DNA from: Pandoraea communis
GTDB taxonomy: Bacteria > Pseudomonadota > Gammaproteobacteria > Burkholderiales > Burkholderiaceae
NCBI RefSeq assembly: GCF_902459745.1
Contig: NZ_CABPSJ010000006.1
Location: 248,001 to 312,000 of the forward strand
DNA length: 64,000 nt
Direction of reading: 5' to 3'
Part shown: positions 206 through 18,375 of the stretch, one piece after another
Position numbering within the stretch: the stretch's first letter is position 1
Layout: the number at the start of each line of letters is the position of its first letter
Made by a program: the position numbers and the translations under genes
Notes under the pieces: model-generated
The model's input: the letters and a program-made list of their open reading frames with translations, nothing else
Database searches by the model: none
What the model was told of the DNA's origin: nothing

Positions 206-727
206 TCAACGCTCCCACATCGGCTTGAGATCCGAGTTTGTGACTAAGGCGTATAGAGCAACACTCGCCTCATGGACCTTGGCAGTGGCCTCCTTAATGT
301 CCGCGAGACGTACGAGCTCCACCGATGTCTTAAGCACGCCGCGTGCCGACATGTACGAGATGGTCACCTGACCGTCGTCATTCACCGTTAACGCATTGTG
401 GGCATACTTGTTGCGCGCCGACTGCGCTGCCCTGATCTTTTTGACGACCCCCTCATACGTACGCAAGTGAGAAAAATCGTTTACGAGCTGCACACACAAA
501 GCGCTCACAATGTCCACACGCTGCTGAAAATTGCTATGTGCCACCATCGTCAATGCACGCAAATCCAGAGGGGAGTCATAGCCGGCCAACTTGGCGATTG
601 CCATTGCGATTGTTGATTCTAGAGACCCCCAGACGCTCACCATGCGGCCGAGCTCCATCAGATAATCATCAGGCACTGGCCAATTCGCGTTGAACTCGCC
701 TCGTTTGGATGTCTTCTGTATCGTCAT
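206..727 (-). CDS. HEPN-like hypothetical protein
   Basis: A 173-residue protein I do not recognise as a named family. It is predicted soluble and helical. Residues 105-110 read RNKYAH, matching the R-x4-6-H motif that forms the active site of HEPN-fold ribonucleases; the helix before it and the position in the second half of the protein also fit. No signal peptide or membrane segment is visible. The ATG at 727 has no clear ribosome binding site. It is divergent from the PIN-like gene at 878. A HEPN function is inferred from one short motif; a structural prediction would be decisive. Confidence 0.6.
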   Translation of the reverse strand: MTIQKTSKRGEFNANWPVPDDYLMELGRMVSVWGSLESTIAMAIAKLAGYDSPLDLRALTMVAHSNFQQRVDIVSALCVQLVNDFSHLRTYEGVVKKIRAAQSARNKYAHNALTVNDDGQVTISYMSARGVLKTSVELVRLADIKEATAKVHEASVALYALVTNSDLKPMWER

Positions 728-877
728 TGCTGCATCTGATCAATTCGTTTGGAAACCAACATATACTATCCTGATATATATACTCGACTACGCCTAGGGT
801 ACCCGCTATCTACCGTGCGAGCTGTCGTACACATAGTCGACGCATCCTGATTGCGTCATACCAAATTGCATAGAAAT

Positions 878-1933
878 ATGGCAAACATGGCCCCGTTCAT
901 AGCAAGACCATTGTCCTATTTTGACCGCGCTGGTGAATGTAACTTCCCGTCCCCAGACCTCATTCGCGCTAACGCCCGGCAGGGTGTCGTCACAGCGCTA
1001 GTCTTAGACGCGAACATTTGCCTCAATTTGTCAAATTATTCGCGAGGCCAGAAGGACCCTGACAAGGAGTCGACATTCCGTCAGTTTCTCCTGGCAGTCG
1101 AGCTAGTCAATGTGGATGTTGTTCCGTATTTTGGATGCTTGGAACTGGCATCATCACGCGAAAGCGATCTGCTCGACACGGACAAATTATTGAGCATCAC
1201 CTCAAACGTCGCACGCGCGCTCGCGCAAACTGAAGAGTCGTTGGCGATGGGGCGCAGCGCACAAACCAAAATTCTCGACACGTTGACGTTGGACGACACA
1301 TCCATATCGGAGGTACGACCCTTACTGCGCTATGCATACTGCTGCTTTCTAAAGATATTCGAAATTCGATCGCACGGTTTTCTGAAGGATAGGGCGGTCA
1401 AGAACTTCATTGCGTTCTTCGACTGGTGCGAATCGATGAACTGCCACATCGCACTGATTTCACAGGCCGCACTCGCACTCTTTGGTGGAGCCAGTGACGC
1501 AAACAAACTTCTGAGTCTTCGCAAGGGAAAAACCCCGCTTGATGCAGCGTGGGGAGCGGCATGGGATATCTGGCATTGCTGGATGGTCCAAAACTATCTT
1601 CCGACGCTACCCGTGGACGGGGTATCGCAGCACCCGATCTTCGTCACTGATGATGCGGCGGCCGCATATATTGCAAAACTATGCGTTCCTCGCGCATTGA
1701 TTCTGGATTCCGGCCAACCTTTCTTGTCTGCCTCTGCCGTAGACTACGATTTCCCGTTTTACGCTGACAAGCGTGAGCGCCTAAATGAGCTTCTAAAGGG
1801 GAGGAATTCGGCGCGATCAAGACGCGTACTAACGAGCATGCTCGAGGGGGCGAAGGTTGATAACTCCCAGATTGAGGAAGAGATCGAGCGATTGGAGAAG
1901 AGCATTCTCACCTCGTGGAACGATGCCGCGTAG
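878..1933 (+). CDS. PIN-like domain protein (putative nuclease)
   Basis: A 351-residue protein, predicted cytoplasmic. It has the layout of a PIN-type nuclease: a hydrophobic strand ending in D44 (VLDAN), an acidic residue E89 after a strand (CLEL), aspartates at about 222 and 230, and a late strand ending in TDD at 257-259. The C-terminal 60 residues are charged and helical. I chose the ATG at 878; an upstream TTG (851) and a downstream ATG (887) are alternatives and none has a good Shine-Dalgarno. Base composition is lower in GC than the core genes. PIN proteins usually cut RNA; the family call is inferred from motif spacing only. Confidence 0.55.
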   Translation: MANMAPFIARPLSYFDRAGECNFPSPDLIRANARQGVVTALVLDANICLNLSNYSRGQKDPDKESTFRQFLLAVELVNVDVVPYFGCLELASSRESDLLDTDKLLSITSNVARALAQTEESLAMGRSAQTKILDTLTLDDTSISEVRPLLRYAYCCFLKIFEIRSHGFLKDRAVKNFIAFFDWCESMNCHIALISQAALALFGGASDANKLLSLRKGKTPLDAAWGAAWDIWHCWMVQNYLPTLPVDGVSQHPIFVTDDAAAAYIAKLCVPRALILDSGQPFLSASAVDYDFPFYADKRERLNELLKGRNSARSRRVLTSMLEGAKVDNSQIEEEIERLEKSILTSWNDAA

Positions 1934-2135
1934 GAGAACCGTCACGACCACAAGTTGAGCAAATGCAATCGCTCGAATGGCCTTCATTGCCCGACTTGTG
2001 GCAATGCCGAATTCCCTCGCATTCGAGTCTATACGCAGTATAGCTACCATCGCCTACGCTCTTTGAACTCCCAAGTTGGGCCAACATGCAGGAATCGATG
2101 CGATTGGCGCGTCGAATACGTCCCAGTACCGAACG

Positions 2136-2468
2136 TTACGCTCGAGGATAGACCTTACCGCTGCTTCGATACTTCCGAAGAAGCTCTGTCAAGAATGAAT
2201 CCACCGCATCATAGTCGTTGAGAAACGCCATAGCCTCCGGATCCTTCTCATCGTCCTCGGGAAGGTCATGAGTCACAAAATACTCGAGAACCATCTGCCA
2301 TTTAACGTCTTCTTCTTCCGTGATTTGGTAGGTCGCGTTCAACCACGCGTACTCCTCGGATGTTCCGTCCAAGCCAAGGCTGCCCCAGACTCGCTCCATC
2401 TCACCGATGATGGAATAGAGAATCGAAGTTTCAATTCCGTCATCATTTTCGCCCATGGTTCCAGTCAT
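2136..2468 (-). CDS. Small acidic hypothetical protein
   Basis: A 110-residue, strongly acidic, helical protein with no recognised domain, signal or membrane segment. The start at 2468 is preferred over the upstream in-frame ATG at 2525 because GGAAG stands four bases before it. Small acidic proteins of this kind are often antitoxins, immunity proteins or phage inhibitors, but nothing in the sequence proves that here. It stands alone on the minus strand, about 200 bases past the PIN-like gene, which is convergent with it. Confidence 0.6.
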   Translation of the reverse strand: MTGTMGENDDGIETSILYSIIGEMERVWGSLGLDGTSEEYAWLNATYQITEEEDVKWQMVLEYFVTHDLPEDDEKDPEAMAFLNDYDAVDSFLTELLRKYRSSGKVYPRA

Positions 2469-2753
2469 AATTCTTCCGTTAGGTTTTCTTGAGCAGGAAG
2501 ACTCGGTACGCCCCGTACCCGGCAAAAATTGGCCGGGCGTATTTCACTCCGAGAAAAATCCGGCGCCCCACGCTCCGTGTGTTAGGGCTCCGTATCAAAC
2601 AAGGCCGGAAAATCCTGTTTTGTCCCGAGGTGTAATGCTCATCCGTCTACCGCTCCCTAGCGGAACGGGCGCGTATGCAATTCAGCTCATTTCGAACGTA
2701 CCCGCTGAAAGTGGTAAATCAATCTCTTAACGCGTCAAACTAATTTCCCAAGT

Positions 2754-3128
2754 TCAGTCATCGATTCGATAAATGCTGTAGCTGATTATCGTATCCACGA
2801 TGAACGTGCTATCGTCCACAAATCCGACAAACACACCGTTGGGGTCTATGATCATGCCGGCAAAGCCGTCGCGCGGCTCTGACGGCCATCGGAAATCCGC
2901 CCTTTGCTCGCCACCCGGTCCGTTCGGATTGAACAACACTCGATCGGGAAATACGCGGGTAATCACGCGCTCAACTCCCTGCAGCTCATCTGGAAGTGGC
3001 ATGTCACTCCCTTTCAGTTGGGTCGCCAACAACGTGATTCTTGCCCCCTCCTTTGCTCTGCGCTTCAGCGCAGCCAGAGTCCTAGGATTCTCCATCCCAC
3101 TACCGAATATCCTCTTAAGAATAGACAT
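2754..3128 (-). CDS. Hypothetical protein, 124 aa
   Basis: An unrecognised protein with a basic N-terminal helix (residues 15-35) and a C-terminal half rich in short strands. A GGAGGG ribosome binding site about seven bases before the ATG at 3128 supports both the gene and its start. No signal peptide. It is 41 bases downstream of the Pmp3-like gene in the same direction and may share its transcript. Confidence 0.65.
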   Translation of the reverse strand: MSILKRIFGSGMENPRTLAALKRRAKEGARITLLATQLKGSDMPLPDELQGVERVITRVFPDRVLFNPNGPGGEQRADFRWPSEPRDGFAGMIIDPNGVFVGFVDDSTFIVDTIISYSIYRIDD

Positions 3129-3169
3129 TCCGAAGCCCTCCAGATGAAGTGTCGGTCAGCGTTTTCTCG

Positions 3170-3364
3170 CTACCTGCGGTTAGCCAAGGCGCGCTCGATT
3201 TTCTTGTCGGTCTTGTACTGGCTCAGCGCATACACAGACCAGATCGCGGCCGGAATCCAGCCGATGATCGTAAGTTGTAGAAGCAGGCAGACGATCCCGG
3301 CAAAGGGGCGCCCGATAGTGAAAAATTGAAGCCACGGCAGAATCAACGCAAGCAGCAGACGCAT
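3170..3364 (-). CDS. YqaE/Pmp3-like small membrane protein
   Basis: A 64-residue protein with two hydrophobic segments (about residues 2-20 and 22-46) separated by a short GRP turn, then a lysine-rich tail. This matches the Pmp3/YqaE (UPF0057) family of small inner-membrane proteins, linked in other organisms to membrane potential and stress tolerance. AGAGGAA precedes the ATG at 3364 with good spacing, so the longer upstream frame is rejected. Function here is by family only. Confidence 0.7.
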   Translation of the reverse strand: MRLLLALILPWLQFFTIGRPFAGIVCLLLQLTIIGWIPAAIWSVYALSQYKTDKKIERALANRR

Positions 3365-3463
3365 GTAATTCCTCTTACGATTAGTGTTCCGGCCTCGGGT
3401 CGGTGTGAGGCGCTTTGCGCCGATGATAATGCTGCAGATTCGGACGGGAACCCCGCACAAAGG

Positions 3464-4207
3464 TCACTTCCGACCTGCCCGCAACTCCGAACAGATGTTC
3501 TGAAATGGTGGTCTTGTCAGGCCAAGATGGCTAGCAAAAAGTTCGAGAAATGATAGAGCACCGCTGAGAGTCCTCTTGGCACACTCGTATCCGAGCACTC
3601 GATACGGGAATTCCGGTTGCGCTTCCGACGCGAACGGATTTGGCGTCAATTTCGGACGCCCCTTGAGCTTCCGCTCAATGGATTTCCAGCTCCCCACCAC
3701 CGTCACAGATGTTCCGTCCAACGGGAGATCAACGGACTGAGGCTTGTAGTGCATCAACGCGTTACGAATATCGATACCAATCGCCAGATCCTGCGCAGCC
3801 GGAGTGCCGAGATCTAGTGGTGCCTTATCAGCCAACAGGCACGCAAACTGAAACTTTTCCAATATGCTCGCCTTTTCAACAATTGAAGTTGCATTCCAGC
3901 CTCTCGCCAATCGATCCACGGCTTGCTCTTCTAGGCCGACGAGGTGATACATATGAGCGTCCGCGCAGTCCGAGAAAAACTCGTTAATGGACGCCTCCAC
4001 TCCCGCGACACTCATGAAAATCGAACCCGAAACGGCCCCCTTGTGTTCGACCGCCTCCCCCGCATTGAAGCCGCCGTATGCGGCTTCAATGCGGGCTGCG
4101 ACCTGAGCTTGGTGAGCCGCAGTCGCAAGATGATTAATCGAGAAGTAAGACCGCATTGTCAATGCAATCGCATCTGCGACCGATGCAGTCCCGTTCAACT
4201 CAGGCAT
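3464..4207 (-). CDS. HEPN-like hypothetical protein with an internal hairpin
   Basis: A 247-residue soluble helical protein. Residues 148-153 read RNALMH, an R-x4-H motif preceded by a helix, as in HEPN-fold proteins. I do not recognise a named family. The coding sequence for residues 38-50 forms a 15-bp perfect inverted repeat (see 4060-4094). The start at 4207 lacks a strong ribosome binding site. It runs in the same direction as the Pmp3-like gene downstream, 99 bases away. An RNase role is an inference from the motif. Confidence 0.6.
   Translation of the reverse strand: MPELNGTASVADAIALTMRSYFSINHLATAAHQAQVAARIEAAYGGFNAGEAVEHKGAVSGSIFMSVAGVEASINEFFSDCADAHMYHLVGLEEQAVDRLARGWNATSIVEKASILEKFQFACLLADKAPLDLGTPAAQDLAIGIDIRNALMHYKPQSVDLPLDGTSVTVVGSWKSIERKLKGRPKLTPNPFASEAQPEFPYRVLGYECAKRTLSGALSFLELFASHLGLTRPPFQNICSELRAGRK
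4060..4094. repeat. 15-bp perfect inverted repeat inside a CDS
   Basis: Two 15-base arms, exact complements, flank a five-base loop (CGTAT) within the gene at 3464-4207, encoding residues 38-50. In mRNA this would be a very stable hairpin close to the 5' end of the message. It could slow translation or be a protein binding site. Confidence 0.85.
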
Positions 4208-4385
4208 AGTTAGTCATAATAAGTAGAGTTTACGGATCGCCATTCGAACTACACGTTTTAGTCTCACAAACGTTCGCGACATTCTCACTAGATAGCACGC
4301 TCCCCTACGCCGTATATTTGCCTTTCTTCGAATCAACGATGCTACCGGGAGCTCGAATTGATAGTTTTCAGAGCGATCGAGCCCG

Positions 4386-5384
4386 CTACTCCATCTGGTC
4401 AGCAGATCTCCAGATGAGGGCCAACCTCGCATTGGATTGCGTGCGCGCATTTTGGGCCGTCGAAAACGCATCGTGCAGCACAGGGACGGTGGCGTTGTAC
4501 GACGCGACAGCTTGAGATAGCGCCTTGCACGGCCCCATGTCAGGGATAGCGTCTCCCCTTTTTACTGCGCCCCCATCCAAACAGGTCCCGCGCCACGCTG
4601 AGATCCGAGCGTTGAGAGAATTCTCCGTCGAGATCGCGTCGTTGTGGGTACGATCGAGACCGTCATCGGCCATGGATAGCTGAGACTTATCACCGCCCAT
4701 CTGAGCAACAATCATCGCAGCCTGACCTTGCGCAATACTATTGCCGGATGCCTTGAGACGCTGTGCCTGAGTGAGCTTCGCCTGTTCCACTATCACAGCA
4801 CGCTCATAGTAGGCCTTGGCCTTGGATAGGCGCTTGATATGCTGATCGGCACTGGCTACAAATCTATTGATATCGCTCGCGAGAACGCCAACTTGGCGGT
4901 TTAGTTGATCGACCTGCTGACCGTGTCGGCGTGCAGCCACGATCGGTTGCCCGATTTGATTAAGCTGGGCAACTGCCGATTCGAAATCGGAAGGGCGCCC
5001 CCTAGCGAAATGCTGGACGGCGGTTTGATTACCGTTAGCAAAGTTCAGGTCAATCCCATCGCGCGTCACTGCACCACTGAAATTCTTGCCGATGGGCAGG
5101 ATCGCGGCCAAAACGGTAAGTGTAATGCTGCCCCCATCAACCGAGCCGGACACATTGGCGTCTCCAGATGACAGTGTCCCGTCATTGTTGAGCGTGGTGT
5201 GGCGGAGTGTGCCGGTGAAGCGGTGATCGGGGGTCTCGGTGATTTGAAGTAGCGCAGCTTGATTGTCGGTATGCGACACATAGACCCCGGACACCGAACG
5301 GCTATCACATCCCGTGATTAGCAATGCTCCCGCCACGATCGCCCAAAGACACTTCACACGACGTCCAGCAAATAGGTCGTTCAT
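4386..5384 (-). CDS. Putative lipoprotein, coiled-coil
   Basis: A 332-residue secreted protein. The N-terminus has a basic patch, a hydrophobic stretch and the lipobox LITGC, so the mature protein should be lipid-anchored at its cysteine. Residues about 30-120 look like a small beta-sheet domain; about 130-300 is helical and rich in Gln, Ala and Lys, consistent with coiled coils. The ATG at 5384 is chosen over 5405 because a G-rich site lies just before it. No family recognised. It stands apart from its neighbours. Confidence 0.7.
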   Translation of the reverse strand: MNDLFAGRRVKCLWAIVAGALLITGCDSRSVSGVYVSHTDNQAALLQITETPDHRFTGTLRHTTLNNDGTLSSGDANVSGSVDGGSITLTVLAAILPIGKNFSGAVTRDGIDLNFANGNQTAVQHFARGRPSDFESAVAQLNQIGQPIVAARRHGQQVDQLNRQVGVLASDINRFVASADQHIKRLSKAKAYYERAVIVEQAKLTQAQRLKASGNSIAQGQAAMIVAQMGGDKSQLSMADDGLDRTHNDAISTENSLNARISAWRGTCLDGGAVKRGDAIPDMGPCKALSQAVASYNATVPVLHDAFSTAQNARTQSNARLALIWRSADQME

Positions 5385-5646
5385 GTCTAGCCCCCGTGGG
5401 TTCATACCCGACTTTCAGCGCAGTATAGCGCCCGTGTAATTTCTACCGGTAAATGCAAAAATCACTGAAATTTCCACCGGAGTTTGTAAATGGGTGATCT
5501 TCTGCATAACGCGCCGCTTCGCTGTATCCAGCGGAGCAATTTGCGATATGGGTAGCGCTGCTCCTTGATCTCAACCAAGGTGCCGAAGAGATCGAAGATC
5601 ACGACGTGCATACATTTTCATCCTCCTGCAGCTCATGCAGCCGCGT

Positions 5647-6015
5647 TCACGCGGATACGCTCGGAAGCAGTTCGTCCATCCTATCCACCAGCACCGCGCT
5701 CCACAACATCGGGTCTAGTTTTGAATTTCTTGCCCCGGTTTTCCTCTCATCGTCGGTTCTCTTGGGATGATGGATGCGATGCATTTTAATCTTGGCGAAC
5801 ATGGCATTCGCTCGGTGCTGGTACTGCACGGATGGCCACTTATTGTGATGATCCGGCCATCTGTTTTGCACCGCAGTGAGCACGAGAAGTTCGGAGAATT
5901 GACGGTCTTCAAACCTGGAAAAATCTGACAAGTGCAGCAGGATCGCGCATTGGCCAGACTCCCCATGTTTGAGTTCCATCTCCATAAGATGCGCGAACTC
6001 ATTTTCGTCGTTCAT
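5647..6015 (-). CDS. Hypothetical protein, 122 aa
   Basis: An unrecognised soluble protein, charged, with several histidines in its second half. The ATG at 6015 is preceded by GGAG at good spacing; the longer frame from 6048 is less likely. No signal peptide or membrane segment. The region between it and the lipoprotein gene (5385-5646) holds no gene I can support. Confidence 0.55.
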   Translation of the reverse strand: MNDENEFAHLMEMELKHGESGQCAILLHLSDFSRFEDRQFSELLVLTAVQNRWPDHHNKWPSVQYQHRANAMFAKIKMHRIHHPKRTDDERKTGARNSKLDPMLWSAVLVDRMDELLPSVSA

Positions 6016-6231
6016 GGCAATCTCCGCCCAGACGACTTGACGAGTCACCGATTTTTACGAGCACGCTTTCACACTCCATCACTTCAGGCTCACCAGTCGC
6101 CGCCGCGTCGCATTTTCTCCCTTCTTTACGTGGTGCGGCCTGTTTTTTCGGGCTGCGCAAGATATTCGTGAGTGCAGGTCGCTCGCCATCGCGTCAAATT
6201 TTATTTCGCATCGGCAACGCAACCGCCCAAG

Positions 6232-7044
6232 CTAGGCTCCCACGCGGTTCCGGGTCACGCCGCTGAAGCCAAGCATCCTAAGGTATTCGGGGAACTCTGC
6301 AAGAAAGGCGTCGTGACACCTTTCCACGAGGAAGGTGATGTCCTGGACGCGCTTTCCGGCGACGCTGTCTGTAATGGGCTGCAGGGCTATCTTGGGACGG
6401 TCACAATTGTGAATGCAGTCGTGGCGACGCTGGAATATTTCCTCGAAGCAATTCTCGAACTGATCCAAAGCGTCGCCCCGCGCTTTGGCCTTATCTGTCG
6501 CGTTGAGAGCCCGATACGCCGTCTTCGTGATTCCGAACAGGCGAGTTTTGGCCTGCGTGTGCAAAATCCAACTCTCGATAGTTGTCTGGGTCAGAATCTT
6601 GTGTGTTTTACGGAAAAAGTGGTTGAAGAGTTGCTTGATCTTGTTGAGGGACAATACGTTCTCGTCCTCAATTAGCTCGCGGGCGGCCATGCGCCACCGC
6701 CAGCCGCCTGCATCTCTGATCACCGCTATCGCGGGCACCTTGAGGTTATTCAATCTATCTGGGAGGTTCACCGCGGGTTGTAGATCCTTCGCTCGAAGCG
6801 TGCGAGCAATCAGGTCGGCGTATGCATCGGAGAAGTATGCGTCGCAAGCGCCCACCGCCATCATCCACACACCGCGTAGTATGTCGTCTCGCAATCGGCT
6901 GGCTGGCAACGTCGCTGCGTGGATAAGAAGATCCGCAGCGCGCTGCATATCCTCGTCGAAGTGCTGTTTCGCTGTTGCTAGCATTTGTTGTCGCGGATAT
7001 TTAGGTTTGCAAGAATTAATGCCTAGAGCGTCGGCCTGTGTCAA
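6232..7044 (-). CDS. RiboL-PSP-HEPN-like protein
   Basis: A 270-residue protein. The N-terminal part (about residues 30-75) resembles the start of RiboL-PSP/MAE_28990-type HEPN domains, with a run of leucines, an invariant-looking DILRG and a DAYFSD segment. The active-site motif RRHDCIH (R207 to H212) near residue 210 is followed by a basic residue, as in that family. Members occur in toxin-antitoxin and defence settings and are thought to be RNases. The best start is a TTG at 7044 with AGGGA before it; an ATG at 6984 lacks such a site. The gene begins only about 20 bases from a helicase remnant, so a rearrangement has placed it there. Confidence 0.7.
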   Translation of the reverse strand: MTQADALGINSCKPKYPRQQMLATAKQHFDEDMQRAADLLIHAATLPASRLRDDILRGVWMMAVGACDAYFSDAYADLIARTLRAKDLQPAVNLPDRLNNLKVPAIAVIRDAGGWRWRMAARELIEDENVLSLNKIKQLFNHFFRKTHKILTQTTIESWILHTQAKTRLFGITKTAYRALNATDKAKARGDALDQFENCFEEIFQRRHDCIHNCDRPKIALQPITDSVAGKRVQDITFLVERCHDAFLAEFPEYLRMLGFSGVTRNRVGA

Positions 7045-7066
7045 GTTTATTCCCTGCGGTTCTCCT

Positions 7067-7390
7067 GTGGAATTTTCGTATGTTGGGGAGCGGCGTCTTT
7101 TCTACGTGGCCCTCACCAGGGCTCGCCGTAGCGTGGCCATGTTTACGACACGTGGACAGTGTTCCTTCTTCTTGCGGGAACTAGAACAGAACGGCGAAGT
7201 GTCGATCACGGACGCCGACGGACAGGTCATTGAGGAAGAAGAATGCCCATCGTGCAGACGAGGGATTCTGGTCTTGCGCTCCGGCCCCTACGGAGAGTTT
7301 CATTCCTGCTCCAACTTTCCTGTCTGCAGGTACAACCCCAGGAAGCGTGGAAACGCGTTGGCGCCAGCAAATACTTCCGGGACAACGGTG
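7067..7390 (+). pseudogene. C-terminal remnant of a UvrD-type helicase with zinc finger
   Basis: The reading frame begins abruptly with ERRLFYVALTRAR, the motif VI arginine-finger region of UvrD/Rep-family helicases, followed by a topoisomerase-type C4 zinc finger (CPSC, then C-x5-C: residues of the form CSNFPVC). Motifs I to V are absent and upstream sequence in frame belongs to the opposite-strand HEPN gene, so this is a broken 3' end. Helicases of this architecture are common in defence islands. Coordinates give the stretch with visible similarity; the frame stays open to 7714 without meaning. Confidence 0.8.
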
Positions 7391-7569
7391 AGTCAGACCA
7401 AACGCCGCGTCGCTGAGCCCCCTTCGCGCCCCTTCGGATGCCCTGCTGTGGGCATTCCGTTGGGACGGCGACCCGACGGTCCGTTGTCACGCACAACCAC
7501 TGCGGCCAGGGAATGGCGAGGTCCCTGCAGCGCTTCCCGATGGTTACGCGCTTGGAACAACGTTGTCGC

Positions 7570-8379
7570 TCAGGTCAGTGCGATCTTAATCAGTCGCAGC
7601 ATATTCGCCAGCAGTGATTTCGCGGTGATCTTCGATCCCGGAAGCCGGAGATTCCGCACGCACGCGGGTTCGGTCGCGACGGTGATCGCAAGCGCGTTTT
7701 GCACGAGTTGGTAAAAGGTTGCCGAATCATTCGGGGCGATGGCTTTCTCAGTGTGGAAATAGTCCAAGTCGATGTCCAGGACGTAGGGCGCCTCGCCAAC
7801 GCCGGGCTCCCCGTTGGCCCGAGCCTTGGCGTCGAGTTCGGCGATTTCGTGGTTCAGGTGCCACGATTCGAGCGCCTGATCGGCGCGCAAGCGCTCGCAC
7901 TGGTCGTCGTGGATGGCCTTCGGGCATGCGATCGCGGCACACCCCGAGTACGTCTCGTAGACGTGCCCCACCGGGTCTGCACGGTTCGAGCCGTCCGTGT
8001 TAATCACAAACGCGCGGGACAGGATGTCCGCCGCGATCGCGGTCCGGATGTGCTCGTCGTGCTTGAGGTTGACGATGGCCCGGTTCACGCTGGCCTTGGT
8101 CGTCCAAGTGAGGTTCCTGAGCAGGCCGCCCGCCATCGCGTCGATCGCCACGGTGTTCCGATTTTGGACCATCCCCGGGCCCGGGTGCACCGTCCAGTAG
8201 CAGTGGTTGTCGAACGGCGATCGCGTGTCCGTGTGGTGATCGAGCGTGAGCAGCGCCGGGGCGCCGACCCCGGCCTGTTCCTGGCGGCGCCGAACTTCCG
8301 CCCAGCCGCCGAGGACGTGGTGGTGATGCTTGACGACGTACACGTCCTTGCCACCGATGATGTGCTTCTGGTGAGCCAT
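7570..8379 (-). CDS. UPF0489 (peptide-arginase-like) protein
   Basis: A 269-residue protein with the two metal-binding signatures of UPF0489: LDHHTDT at residues 46-52 and DIDLDYF at 202-208. The family has an arginase-like fold; one characterised branch (OspR type) converts arginine to ornithine in peptides. Whether this member acts on peptides is unknown and no precursor peptide gene is visible nearby. A KHHHH run lies at 18-21. The ATG at 8379 is preferred to 8415, which lacks a ribosome binding site. GC content is higher than in the genes to its right, suggesting a separate origin. Confidence 0.75.
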   Translation of the reverse strand: MAHQKHIIGGKDVYVVKHHHHVLGGWAEVRRRQEQAGVGAPALLTLDHHTDTRSPFDNHCYWTVHPGPGMVQNRNTVAIDAMAGGLLRNLTWTTKASVNRAIVNLKHDEHIRTAIAADILSRAFVINTDGSNRADPVGHVYETYSGCAAIACPKAIHDDQCERLRADQALESWHLNHEIAELDAKARANGEPGVGEAPYVLDIDLDYFHTEKAIAPNDSATFYQLVQNALAITVATEPACVRNLRLPGSKITAKSLLANMLRLIKIALT

Positions 8380-8683
8380 GCTGGTGATGCCCTTGTTGCG
8401 AGAGGGTACCAGCATACAACGAGGCGCGGGATGGCATGGCCCTTACCCCCGTTGGGGGACGGCACATCAAGCGCAAGAGCCTCGCGCGCCTCCGTGCAAT
8501 CGAGGCCTGCCCCGTGCTCGCCAAAGCCTTATCCACCGCTGTGCTCAACATGCCCAGTGGCAGGCGTGATGGCCTGCTGAAGGTAACCGGGCGGTGAATC
8601 GTCCGGCTCAGCATGCAGCGGGCGGGGTGCAGCACAAGATCCTTGGGGTTAGTTATGTCGCTCACGCTCGCCTGATTGCGACC
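8380..8683. other. Intergenic region, no gene seen
   Basis: Three hundred bases between the end of the Rep-like gene and the start of the UPF0489 gene, both on the minus strand. A small G-rich hairpin lies near 8445-8462. I see no coding frame that I trust. Confidence 0.5.
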
Positions 8684-17345: not shown

Positions 17346-17771
17346 TCACTCGACGCCTAGCGCCTTGAAAACGGCGTCGTCGCGGTGCTCACATTCAGCA
17401 AGGAAACCGTCCCATTGACGATGATTCAGATTCTTTTCCAGGCGTCGCAGATCCATCGCGTAAACATCGCGCATAAAGTCGCCCAGCAGCCGGCTATGAC
17501 GAATCGCCGCCGACAGCAAAATCTGTCGGCAAAGCTCGCCGTCGCCTTCGACCACAAGTCGAACGCCCTCTTCGTCCAAGGTTTCGAGGCGACGACGGAT
17601 TAGGCGTGCCTGACGCTTAGCCGTGGCTGGCTTCTTCTGCAATAAATTCTCGTCGTTCAGGGCCGACTCCCACAGTTCGTCGCTGGGTCGCGAAAGCAAA
17701 AGGGGCGCGATCCGCCGGCTCTCAGGAATCATCAGTGAACCTGCGGAGATTTCGGCGTTATACAGGCCCAC
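17346..17771 (-). CDS. brxA: Truncated BrxA (DUF1819), BREX remnant
   Basis: The 141-residue product matches the N-terminal two thirds of BrxA (DUF1819), the small DNA-binding protein that begins BREX phage-defence operons: YNAEISAGSL near the start, then PATAKRQARLIRRRLETLD and RHSRLLGDFMRDVY. Family members run to about 200 residues; here the C-terminal end is missing and no brxB, brxC, pglX, pglZ or brxL is in the window. The GTG start at 17771 has a strong GGGGAG site; the longer frame from 17876 is not needed. It may be a pseudogene. Confidence 0.75.
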   Translation of the reverse strand: MGLYNAEISAGSLMIPESRRIAPLLLSRPSDELWESALNDENLLQKKPATAKRQARLIRRRLETLDEEGVRLVVEGDGELCRQILLSAAIRHSRLLGDFMRDVYAMDLRRLEKNLNHRQWDGFLAECEHRDDAVFKALGVE

Positions 17772-18054
17772 CGCACATCTCCCCAACAATCCCCCGGATG
17801 ACGTGGGTTGTCGTGCCCAGACCGCAGCCTTCGCAAATGGTCGCAAGTTCCCATTTTGATCACGCTGTTCCATCAACTTTCTTCATCGCCCGTGATTCGC
17901 TGAGCGCGCAGCGCCCATCACTTCAAAGTCGCCATTATCGCGTACAGCTCGGCCAAACCCGTTATCACGATTCTGATGACTGACGAGGACTGAGTTTCAC
18001 ACGCCTCTTCGATGACCGCGAGGCGTTTCCCAACCGCTCAGCATGGAGGGCGCT

Positions 18055-18292: not shown

Positions 18293-18299
18293 ATTTTAT

Positions 18300-18375
<76 letters not shown>

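What the first reader, a model, noticed from the sequence alone, without database searches (positions are those of the whole stretch)
206..7044. Three HEPN-type R-x4-H proteins and a PIN-like protein within 7 kb
Three separate reading frames (206-727, 3464-4207, 6232-7044) carry R-x4-H motifs at RNKYAH, RNALMH and RHDCIH, and the frame at 878-1933 has PIN-like spaced acidic residues. HEPN and PIN domains are the two most common RNase folds in toxin and antiviral systems. Finding four candidates together in an island next to helicase and BREX remnants suggests an RNA-targeting defence cluster that may not have been described as a unit. Seen: the motifs. Inferred: the folds and a joint role.
Basis: partly seen in the sequence, partly recalled or inferred. 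Interest (0 to 1): 0.72.

Follow-up and report, generated by a model that had tools for sequence, protein, structure and literature searches.

The report
Unrelated RNase-like genes in mobile island
Three probable RNA-cutting (HEPN) genes sit together in the cargo of a mobile DNA island of a Pandoraea bacterium, but they look like separate passengers rather than one system; one belongs to a gene family that in related bacteria usually closes a short-Argonaute immunity operon.

Summary
The R-x4-H motifs are real. A bare R-x4-H is common (21 of 52 window genes); R[NDH]x3H is rarer (5 of 52), and relatives of all three proteins keep the motif. Three separate HEPN families are likely. The PIN fold could not be tested: no relatives found, model pLDDT 40.6.

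The joint unit is not supported. In 150 family genomes, own included, the four genes occur in 5, 1, 3 and 2; only the window's own genome holds two or more. A sister species carries all four, but within the same near-identical element, about 77 kb in tRNA-Thr between 49-bp att repeats.

New: the 206-727 family closes SIR2-APAZ / short-pAgo / Abi_C / HEPN gene runs. It lies behind pAgo in 8 of 10 independent loci. The window copy is an orphan: its genome shows no pAgo or Abi_C match. Most likely it is a HEPN ribonuclease, an accessory of a short-Argonaute abortive-infection operon, now detached. Fold and activity are inferred.

The parts
206..727 (-). HEPN-A, 173 aa, RNKYAH at 105-110; orphan member of the family that closes SIR2-APAZ/short-pAgo gene runs
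851..1933 (+). PIN-like candidate (more likely start 878), acidic motifs LDANI / CLELAS / LDAAW / VTDD; no relatives found outside the same element
3170..3460 (-). small Pmp3-type membrane protein directly behind HEPN-B
   Evidence: PF01679 E 3.8e-8
3464..4207 (-). HEPN-B, 247 aa, RNALMH at 148-153; family also on Streptomyces, haloarchaeal and Achromobacter plasmids and in IMG/VR contigs
6232..7044 (-). HEPN-C, 270 aa, RHDCIH at 207-212; RiboL-PSP-HEPN-like
6485..7714 (+). frame holding the tail of a truncated UvrD-type helicase with a Top1-type zinc ribbon; its first part runs antisense to HEPN-C
7570..8415 (-). UPF0489 gene; in P. terrae (L030) its 73% identical relative lies just upstream of SIR2-APAZ in the pAgo gene run
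17346..17876 (-). lone BrxA (BREX remnant) near the right end of the element
18299..18347 (+). attachment repeat: 49 bp covering the tRNA-Thr 3' part, repeated at window coordinate -58875
18300..18375 (-). tRNA-Thr(TGT), integration site of the element

Best explanation
The region is variable cargo of a roughly 77-kb integrative element in tRNA-Thr of a Pandoraea (shown). It holds three HEPN-type proteins from three families that occur separately elsewhere and, where compared (A with B, B with C), show no similarity to each other (shown by relatives and profiles; the folds are inferred). HEPN-A is a detached copy of a gene that in relatives closes a close-packed run SIR2-APAZ NADase / short pAgo / Abi_C / HEPN-A (shown). 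I infer that HEPN-A is a metal-independent ribonuclease of the R-x4-H kind. In the full operon, when the pAgo meets invader nucleic acid and SIR2 consumes NAD+, the two HEPN-motif proteins add RNA cleavage, or act as a second arm that shuts the cell down. In the window, with no pAgo, HEPN-A either acts alone as a small abortive-infection RNase or is a leftover still carrying the marks of constraint. HEPN-B and HEPN-C are best read as solo abortive-infection RNases.
For: Separate families: in the 150-genome draws no genome but the own one holds two of the four; profile comparison of A with B and of B with C gives nothing (probabilities 0.3 and 0.1). One element: 7 differences to the sister species between -58,877 and 18,188, against 4-11% in each full kilobase from 18,000 to 40,000; 49-bp att repeats; a tyrosine integrase at the left end (L068:16355-17734, about window -58,645 to -57,266). 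Operon: HEPN-A lies behind SIR2-APAZ and pAgo in 8 of 10 independent loci, overlapping the preceding gene by 4 bp in 7 of those 8 (the eighth has a split Abi_C frame); pAgo_I and Aga_SIR2 models match at E below 1e-200 in the two loci scanned (L019, L021); Abi_C PF14355 at 1e-12 to 1e-13. In the pAgo survey, 7 of 7 loci with pAgo at least 72% identical to L019's (L019 itself counted) carry HEPN-A, and 0 of 10 loci at 63% or less do. HEPN: conserved RNxxxH, weak Csm6-HEPN matches, best model mean pLDDT 75 with residues 105-110 at the end of helix 86-109. Constraint: window HEPN-A against five relatives, dN 0.17-0.23 with dS saturated or above 2.8.
Against: The fold search for HEPN-A was inconclusive, and only one of five models was good (75.0 against 51-55). 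Csm6 matches are below the Pfam and NCBIfam cut-offs; across the family the Pfam hits are mixed, with Phage-A118_gp45 matching more members (4 of 7, best E 0.0037) than any HEPN model (1 of 7 each). HEPN-A lives without pAgo in the window, in G036 (with Abi_C only, on a 13.2-kb contig) and, at 35-37% identity, on P. syringae plasmids; in the three looked at, the 4-6 kb flanks show no annotated pAgo. So coupling is not obligatory. Abi_C relatives occur without a detected HEPN-A in four loci, two of them only weak partial matches. In L021 another same-strand gene (1213 aa) follows HEPN-A after about 180 bp, so HEPN-A need not be the operon's last gene there. No activity has been measured.
Confidence: 0.6

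Rival explanations
1. Abi_C and HEPN-A form a two-gene module of their own (toxin-antitoxin-like or abortive infection) that merely hitchhikes behind SIR2/pAgo; the window copy is half of it.
For: G036 has Abi_C/HEPN-A with a 4-bp overlap and no pAgo on its 13.2-kb contig; Abi_C relatives without detected HEPN-A in four loci, two of them weak; Abi_C also carries an R-x6-H motif, RN(D/E)(Q/R)SLAH, in 7 of 7 intact copies.
Against: 8 of 10 independent HEPN-A loci adjoin SIR2/pAgo, and G017 (L021) has pAgo/HEPN-A with 4-bp overlap and no Abi_C between, so HEPN-A follows pAgo even without Abi_C.
Confidence: 0.25
2. HEPN-A is a non-catalytic regulator or adaptor of the SIR2/pAgo complex that keeps the HEPN fold.
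For: HEPN domains that have lost the motif and are fused to other domains are known (PMC3710099, passages); the protein is short and sits at the end of the close-packed run.
Against: R, N and H of the motif are invariant in 7 of 7 aligned rows and kept in four weak relatives.
Confidence: 0.15
3. The four genes are one RNA-targeting defence cluster.
For: They lie within 7 kb; all four are present and unchanged in the sister species.
Against: That copy is the same element. No second independent carrier in 150 family genomes. Both strands, other frames between; relatives have other neighbours.
Confidence: 0.05
4. One or more of the three motifs is a chance R-x4-H in a helical protein that is not HEPN.
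For: 21 of 52 window genes have an R-x4-H; the fold search for HEPN-A was inconclusive; one relative only was found for HEPN-C.
Against: Invariance in relatives; RiboL-PSP-HEPN hits for the B family and for C.
Confidence: 0.15

Closest known systems
SPARSA (SIR2-APAZ plus short pAgo; PMC10781750, passages read)
   Same: Relatives of HEPN-A lie directly behind SIR2-APAZ and class I short pAgo genes; in L019 and L021 these match the PADLOC models over nearly full length.
   Different: The described operon is two genes; here Abi_C and HEPN-A follow in the same close-packed run. The window's genome shows no pAgo or Abi_C match, and no SIR2-APAZ was seen in the 40 kb searched.
HEPN effectors downstream of long-B pAgo (PMC10954474, passages read)
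   Same: A HEPN domain as putative effector next to an Argonaute gene.
   Different: There HEPN is fused to a conserved helical region and goes with long-B pAgo; here it is a stand-alone 173-aa protein with a short pAgo that already has a SIR2 effector.
RiboL-PSP-HEPN (PF18735)
   Same: Weak match of HEPN-C (E 6e-4) and of 3 of 9 HEPN-B family members (best E 4e-4).
   Different: Below Pfam's cut-off for HEPN-C; the window's HEPN-B itself has no match.
Csm6 / CARF-HEPN
   Same: HEPN-A matches the HEPN part (PADLOC E 9e-4, NCBIfam 0.005, Pfam 0.14).
   Different: At 173 aa it matches only the HEPN end of these models; below the Pfam and NCBIfam cut-offs. No CRISPR search was made.

Membership tests
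HEPN superfamily (HEPN-A, 206-727) | R-x4-6-H with N, D or H after R | tested here: met
   RNKYAH; R105, N106, H110 invariant in 7 of 7 rows and kept in four weak relatives; definition from PMC3710099 passages
HEPN superfamily (HEPN-A, 206-727) | conserved acidic residue upstream of the motif, often in Ex3[KR] | tested here: inconclusive
   E25 and E37 are invariant, but neither is in an Ex3[KR] context
[quoted passage not shown]
   model pLDDT 75: helices 20-48, 56-63, 67-81, 86-109, 141-163; motif 105-110 ends a long helix; fold search inconclusive
HEPN superfamily (HEPN-B, 3464-4207) | R-x4-6-H with N, D or H after R | tested here: met
   R148 and H153 invariant in 9 of 9 rows; residue after R is N in 8 and H in 1; two found relatives (L017, L004) were not in any alignment
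HEPN superfamily (HEPN-B, 3464-4207) | similarity to a described HEPN family | tested here: inconclusive
   3 of 9 members match PF18735, best E 4e-4; the window member none
HEPN superfamily (HEPN-C, 6232-7044) | R-x4-6-H with N, D or H after R | tested here: met
   RHDCIH, identical in the single relative
HEPN superfamily (all three) | metal-independent RNase activity | not testable with these tools
   needs an assay
PIN domain (851-1933) | four spaced acidic residues in order | tested here: inconclusive
   LDANI, CLELAS, LDAAW, VTDD present but no relatives to show conservation; the PIN motif pattern is recalled
PIN domain (851-1933) | PIN fold | tested here: inconclusive
   single-sequence model pLDDT 40.6, unusable; no Pfam PIN match
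SPARSA system in the window | SIR2-APAZ and short pAgo next to the gene | tested here: not met
   no convincing SIR2, pAgo or Abi_C match in the 40 kb searched (best pAgo E 0.087); own genome without pAgo match by protein and by model PDLC02377, which rings in 21 of 398 family genomes
Joint RNA-targeting cluster | genes recur together in independent genomes | tested here: not met
   samples, not all genomes

The most novel reading that the evidence does not exclude
A clade of short-Argonaute systems in Burkholderiaceae has more than one effector: on sensing an invader the SIR2-APAZ/pAgo complex depletes NAD+ and also releases or activates two small HEPN ribonucleases (Abi_C and HEPN-A) made from the same operon. 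HEPN-A can also leave the operon and serve alone in mobile islands, as in the window. A further short-pAgo locus (L099) has an AbiU2-type HEPN gene 235 bp downstream, hinting that HEPN recruitment happened more than once.
Probability: 0.2. Interest if true: 0.7.

Novelty: new variant of a known kind. Interest (0 to 1): 0.42.

Why it matters
SPARSA is described as a two-gene device, sensor plus one effector (PMC10781750, passages). A conserved gene run that adds two HEPN-motif genes would make RNA cleavage a testable second arm of a known defence, and would give a function to the HEPN-A family, which matched the Pfam, NCBIfam, PHROGs and PADLOC models only weakly here. For the window itself the lesson is about defence islands: motif-sharing neighbours in a mobile element need not be one system.

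Tried and rejected

Rows dropped or misread: of 21 pAgo hits, 17 loci were examined and the four weakest (G765, G548, G654, G751) were not fetched. In one search, four minus-strand loci (L004, L006, L008, L011) were read on the wrong strand; L006, L008 and L011 were read again from L019, L021 and L025, but L004 (the weak HEPN-B match in G063) was not. The HEPN-B relative in Methylovirgula (L017) was left out of the alignments because the frame read from its match start ended before the motif. L038 and L039 are not in the 9-row alignment; L038 is in A5, where the motif is kept. L034 (P. amygdali) was left out of the HEPN-A alignments. In L103 (G677) the Abi_C frame is split; it is counted as having pAgo and HEPN-A. 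Of 7 Abi_C hits, G563 was not fetched. HEPN-A was not compared with HEPN-C by profile.
Full report
Setting. The window is contig 6, 248001-312000 of a 5.7-Mb genome. The genus is Pandoraea: the same-genus genome G534 carries its HEPN-A copy on a contig of 281,304 bases, the length of the Pandoraea terrae contig NZ_CABPRZ010000006.1 found independently.

Observation. The three R-x4-H motifs and their frames are as stated. R-x4-H alone proves little: 21 of 52 called window genes have one. R[NDH]x3H is in 5 of 52, including the three named frames. PMC3710099 (passages) says the residue after R in HEPN motifs is mostly N, D or H. Conservation carries more weight. In the 206-727 family R105, N106, Y108 and H110 are invariant in 7 of 7 rows, and four weak hits (two of them identical) keep RNxxxH. 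In the 3464-4207 family R148 and H153 are invariant in 9 of 9 rows, from the window, another Burkholderiaceae genome, Achromobacter, two Streptomyces, a haloarchaeon and three IMG/VR contigs. For 6232-7044 one relative (52% identity) keeps RRHDCIH. The PIN candidate has a plausible order of acidic motifs but nothing to test it with.

Fold evidence. Pfam gives RiboL-PSP-HEPN for 6232-7044 (E 6e-4, below cut-off) and for 3 of 9 members of the 3464-4207 family (best 4e-4). For 206-727 the Csm6/CARF-HEPN matches are weak (Pfam 0.14, PADLOC 9e-4, NCBIfam 0.005), and across the family they are mixed with unrelated models. Its best AlphaFold model (mean pLDDT 75, pTM 0.68; the other four 51-55) is helical with a beta insert, the motif lying at the end of helix 86-109, as PMC3710099 describes for HEPN helix 3. 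Foldseek and VIA were inconclusive. I therefore call it a probable HEPN protein, not a proven one. The PIN model is unusable (pLDDT 40.6).

Are they a unit? Not on this evidence. In draws of 150 family genomes, own included (the handles shown agree between draws), 206-727 was found in 5 (one weak), 3464-4207 in 3 (one weak), 6232-7044 in 2, and the PIN candidate in 1; only the own genome appears in more than one list. In the genus, 5 of 32 genomes match 206-727: three strongly (own, G519, G534) and two weakly. G519 holds all four frames unchanged, but as part of the same element: between -58,877 and 18,188 in window coordinates the two genomes differ at 7 positions, while each full kilobase from 18,000 to 40,000 differs by 4-11%.

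The element. A 49-bp direct repeat covering the tRNA-Thr 3' part lies at -58,875 and at 18,299, with a tyrosine integrase just inside the left end (L068:16355-17734, PF00589). In G117 only about 170 bp separate the counterparts of own -78,823 and own 18,248. G520 has another island at the same tRNA-Thr: it shares the module left of the finding (80% identity over own -6168 to -773) and has an integrase beside the tRNA and an Abi_C gene (E 1e-21) as cargo. The finding thus lies in a cargo zone. L021 and L023, loci of relatives of A and B, carry pieces of the same backbone.

HEPN-A and short Argonautes. Around relatives of 206-727 the same run of genes recurs: SIR2-APAZ, short pAgo, Abi_C, HEPN-A. 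PADLOC models Aga_SIR2 and pAgo_I match at E below 1e-200 in the two loci scanned (L019, L021); SIR2_2 and Abi_C match in Pfam. Counting each genome once and the window's element once, 10 independent loci have HEPN-A at 60% identity or more: L019, L020, L021, L029, L030, L031, L032, L013/L100, L103 and the window's element. Eight have SIR2 and pAgo directly upstream; in seven of these Abi_C lies between (its frame is split in L103), and in L021 HEPN-A follows pAgo directly. L020 has Abi_C and HEPN-A only. HEPN-A overlaps the gene before it by 4 bp in 7 of those 8 and in L020; in L021 a same-strand 1213-aa gene (PDC-S68 model) follows after about 180 bp. From the other side, 21 of 398 family genomes have a pAgo_I hit. 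Of the 17 loci examined, all 7 whose pAgo is at least 72% identical to L019's (itself counted) have HEPN-A, and none of 10 at 63% or less does (blastp E 1e-3 on same-strand frames, so remote versions could be missed). One of those ten, L099, has an AbiU2-type HEPN gene (PF18734, E 5.5e-24) 235 bp downstream of pAgo. The window's genome has no pAgo or Abi_C match, and no SIR2-APAZ was seen in the 40 kb searched. In P. terrae the UPF0489 gene stands just upstream of SIR2, in the same order and orientation as UPF0489 (7570-8415) and HEPN-A in the window. This suggests, without proving it, that the window's 728-7569 stretch replaced the SIR2/pAgo/Abi_C core. HEPN-A shows constraint (dN 0.17-0.23 to five relatives, dS saturated or above 2.8).

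Against coupling. HEPN-A occurs away from pAgo in L020, in the window's element and, at 35-37% identity, on P. syringae plasmids. Abi_C relatives without detected HEPN-A were seen in four loci: one truncated, one 61% identical, two weak. In a class-wide draw the profile rang in 3 of 369 genomes, own included.

How it probably works. Shown: gene order, motif conservation, constraint. Inferred: HEPN fold, RNase activity, and coupling to pAgo. The two-gene SPARSA depletes NAD+ in abortive infection (PMC10781750, passages). I think the HEPN genes add RNA cleavage; the next best readings are a free Abi_C/HEPN-A module or a regulator.

Literature. PMC6299218 (passages) surveyed pAgo operons; its main text has no occurrence of HEPN, but it kept only gene groups present in at least 5% of operons of a pAgo type, so a clade-specific gene could be missed. 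PMC10954474 (passages) reports HEPN effectors with long-B pAgo. PMC10620215 was seen in passages. My searches listed no title or abstract start on a SIR2/pAgo/Abi_C/HEPN operon. For one search only 15 of 40 papers were listed, I did not read the listed papers through, and subscription papers are not held. So I claim only that I did not find it in print.

Noticed in passing
window 17346-17876 (-): A lone BrxA gene (PF08849, E 2e-35) beside the tRNA-Thr end of the element; other BREX genes were not searched for.
   Followed up: no
L099:6603-7352: An AbiU2-type HEPN gene (PF18734, E 5.5e-24) 235 bp downstream of another SIR2/pAgo pair, a possible second HEPN recruitment.
   Followed up: partly
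L075:7774-8688: At the same tRNA-Thr in another Pandoraea genome, a related island carries an Abi_C-type gene (PF14355, E 1e-21) in its cargo.
   Followed up: partly
window 3170-3460 (-): A Pmp3-type small membrane protein directly behind HEPN-B, with a weak superinfection-immunity match (PF14373, E 0.058).
   Followed up: no
L103 (G677): The Abi_C reading frame between pAgo and HEPN-A is split, giving a fused long frame; decay or sequencing error.
   Followed up: no
own contig, window coordinate about -62,131: A further partial copy of the tRNA-Thr att sequence left of the element, suggesting an older or tandem integration.
   Followed up: no
L021:3534-7175: A 1213-aa protein matching PDC-S68 (PADLOC E 0) lies about 180 bp behind HEPN-A on the same strand in Burkholderia sp. 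L27.
   Followed up: no
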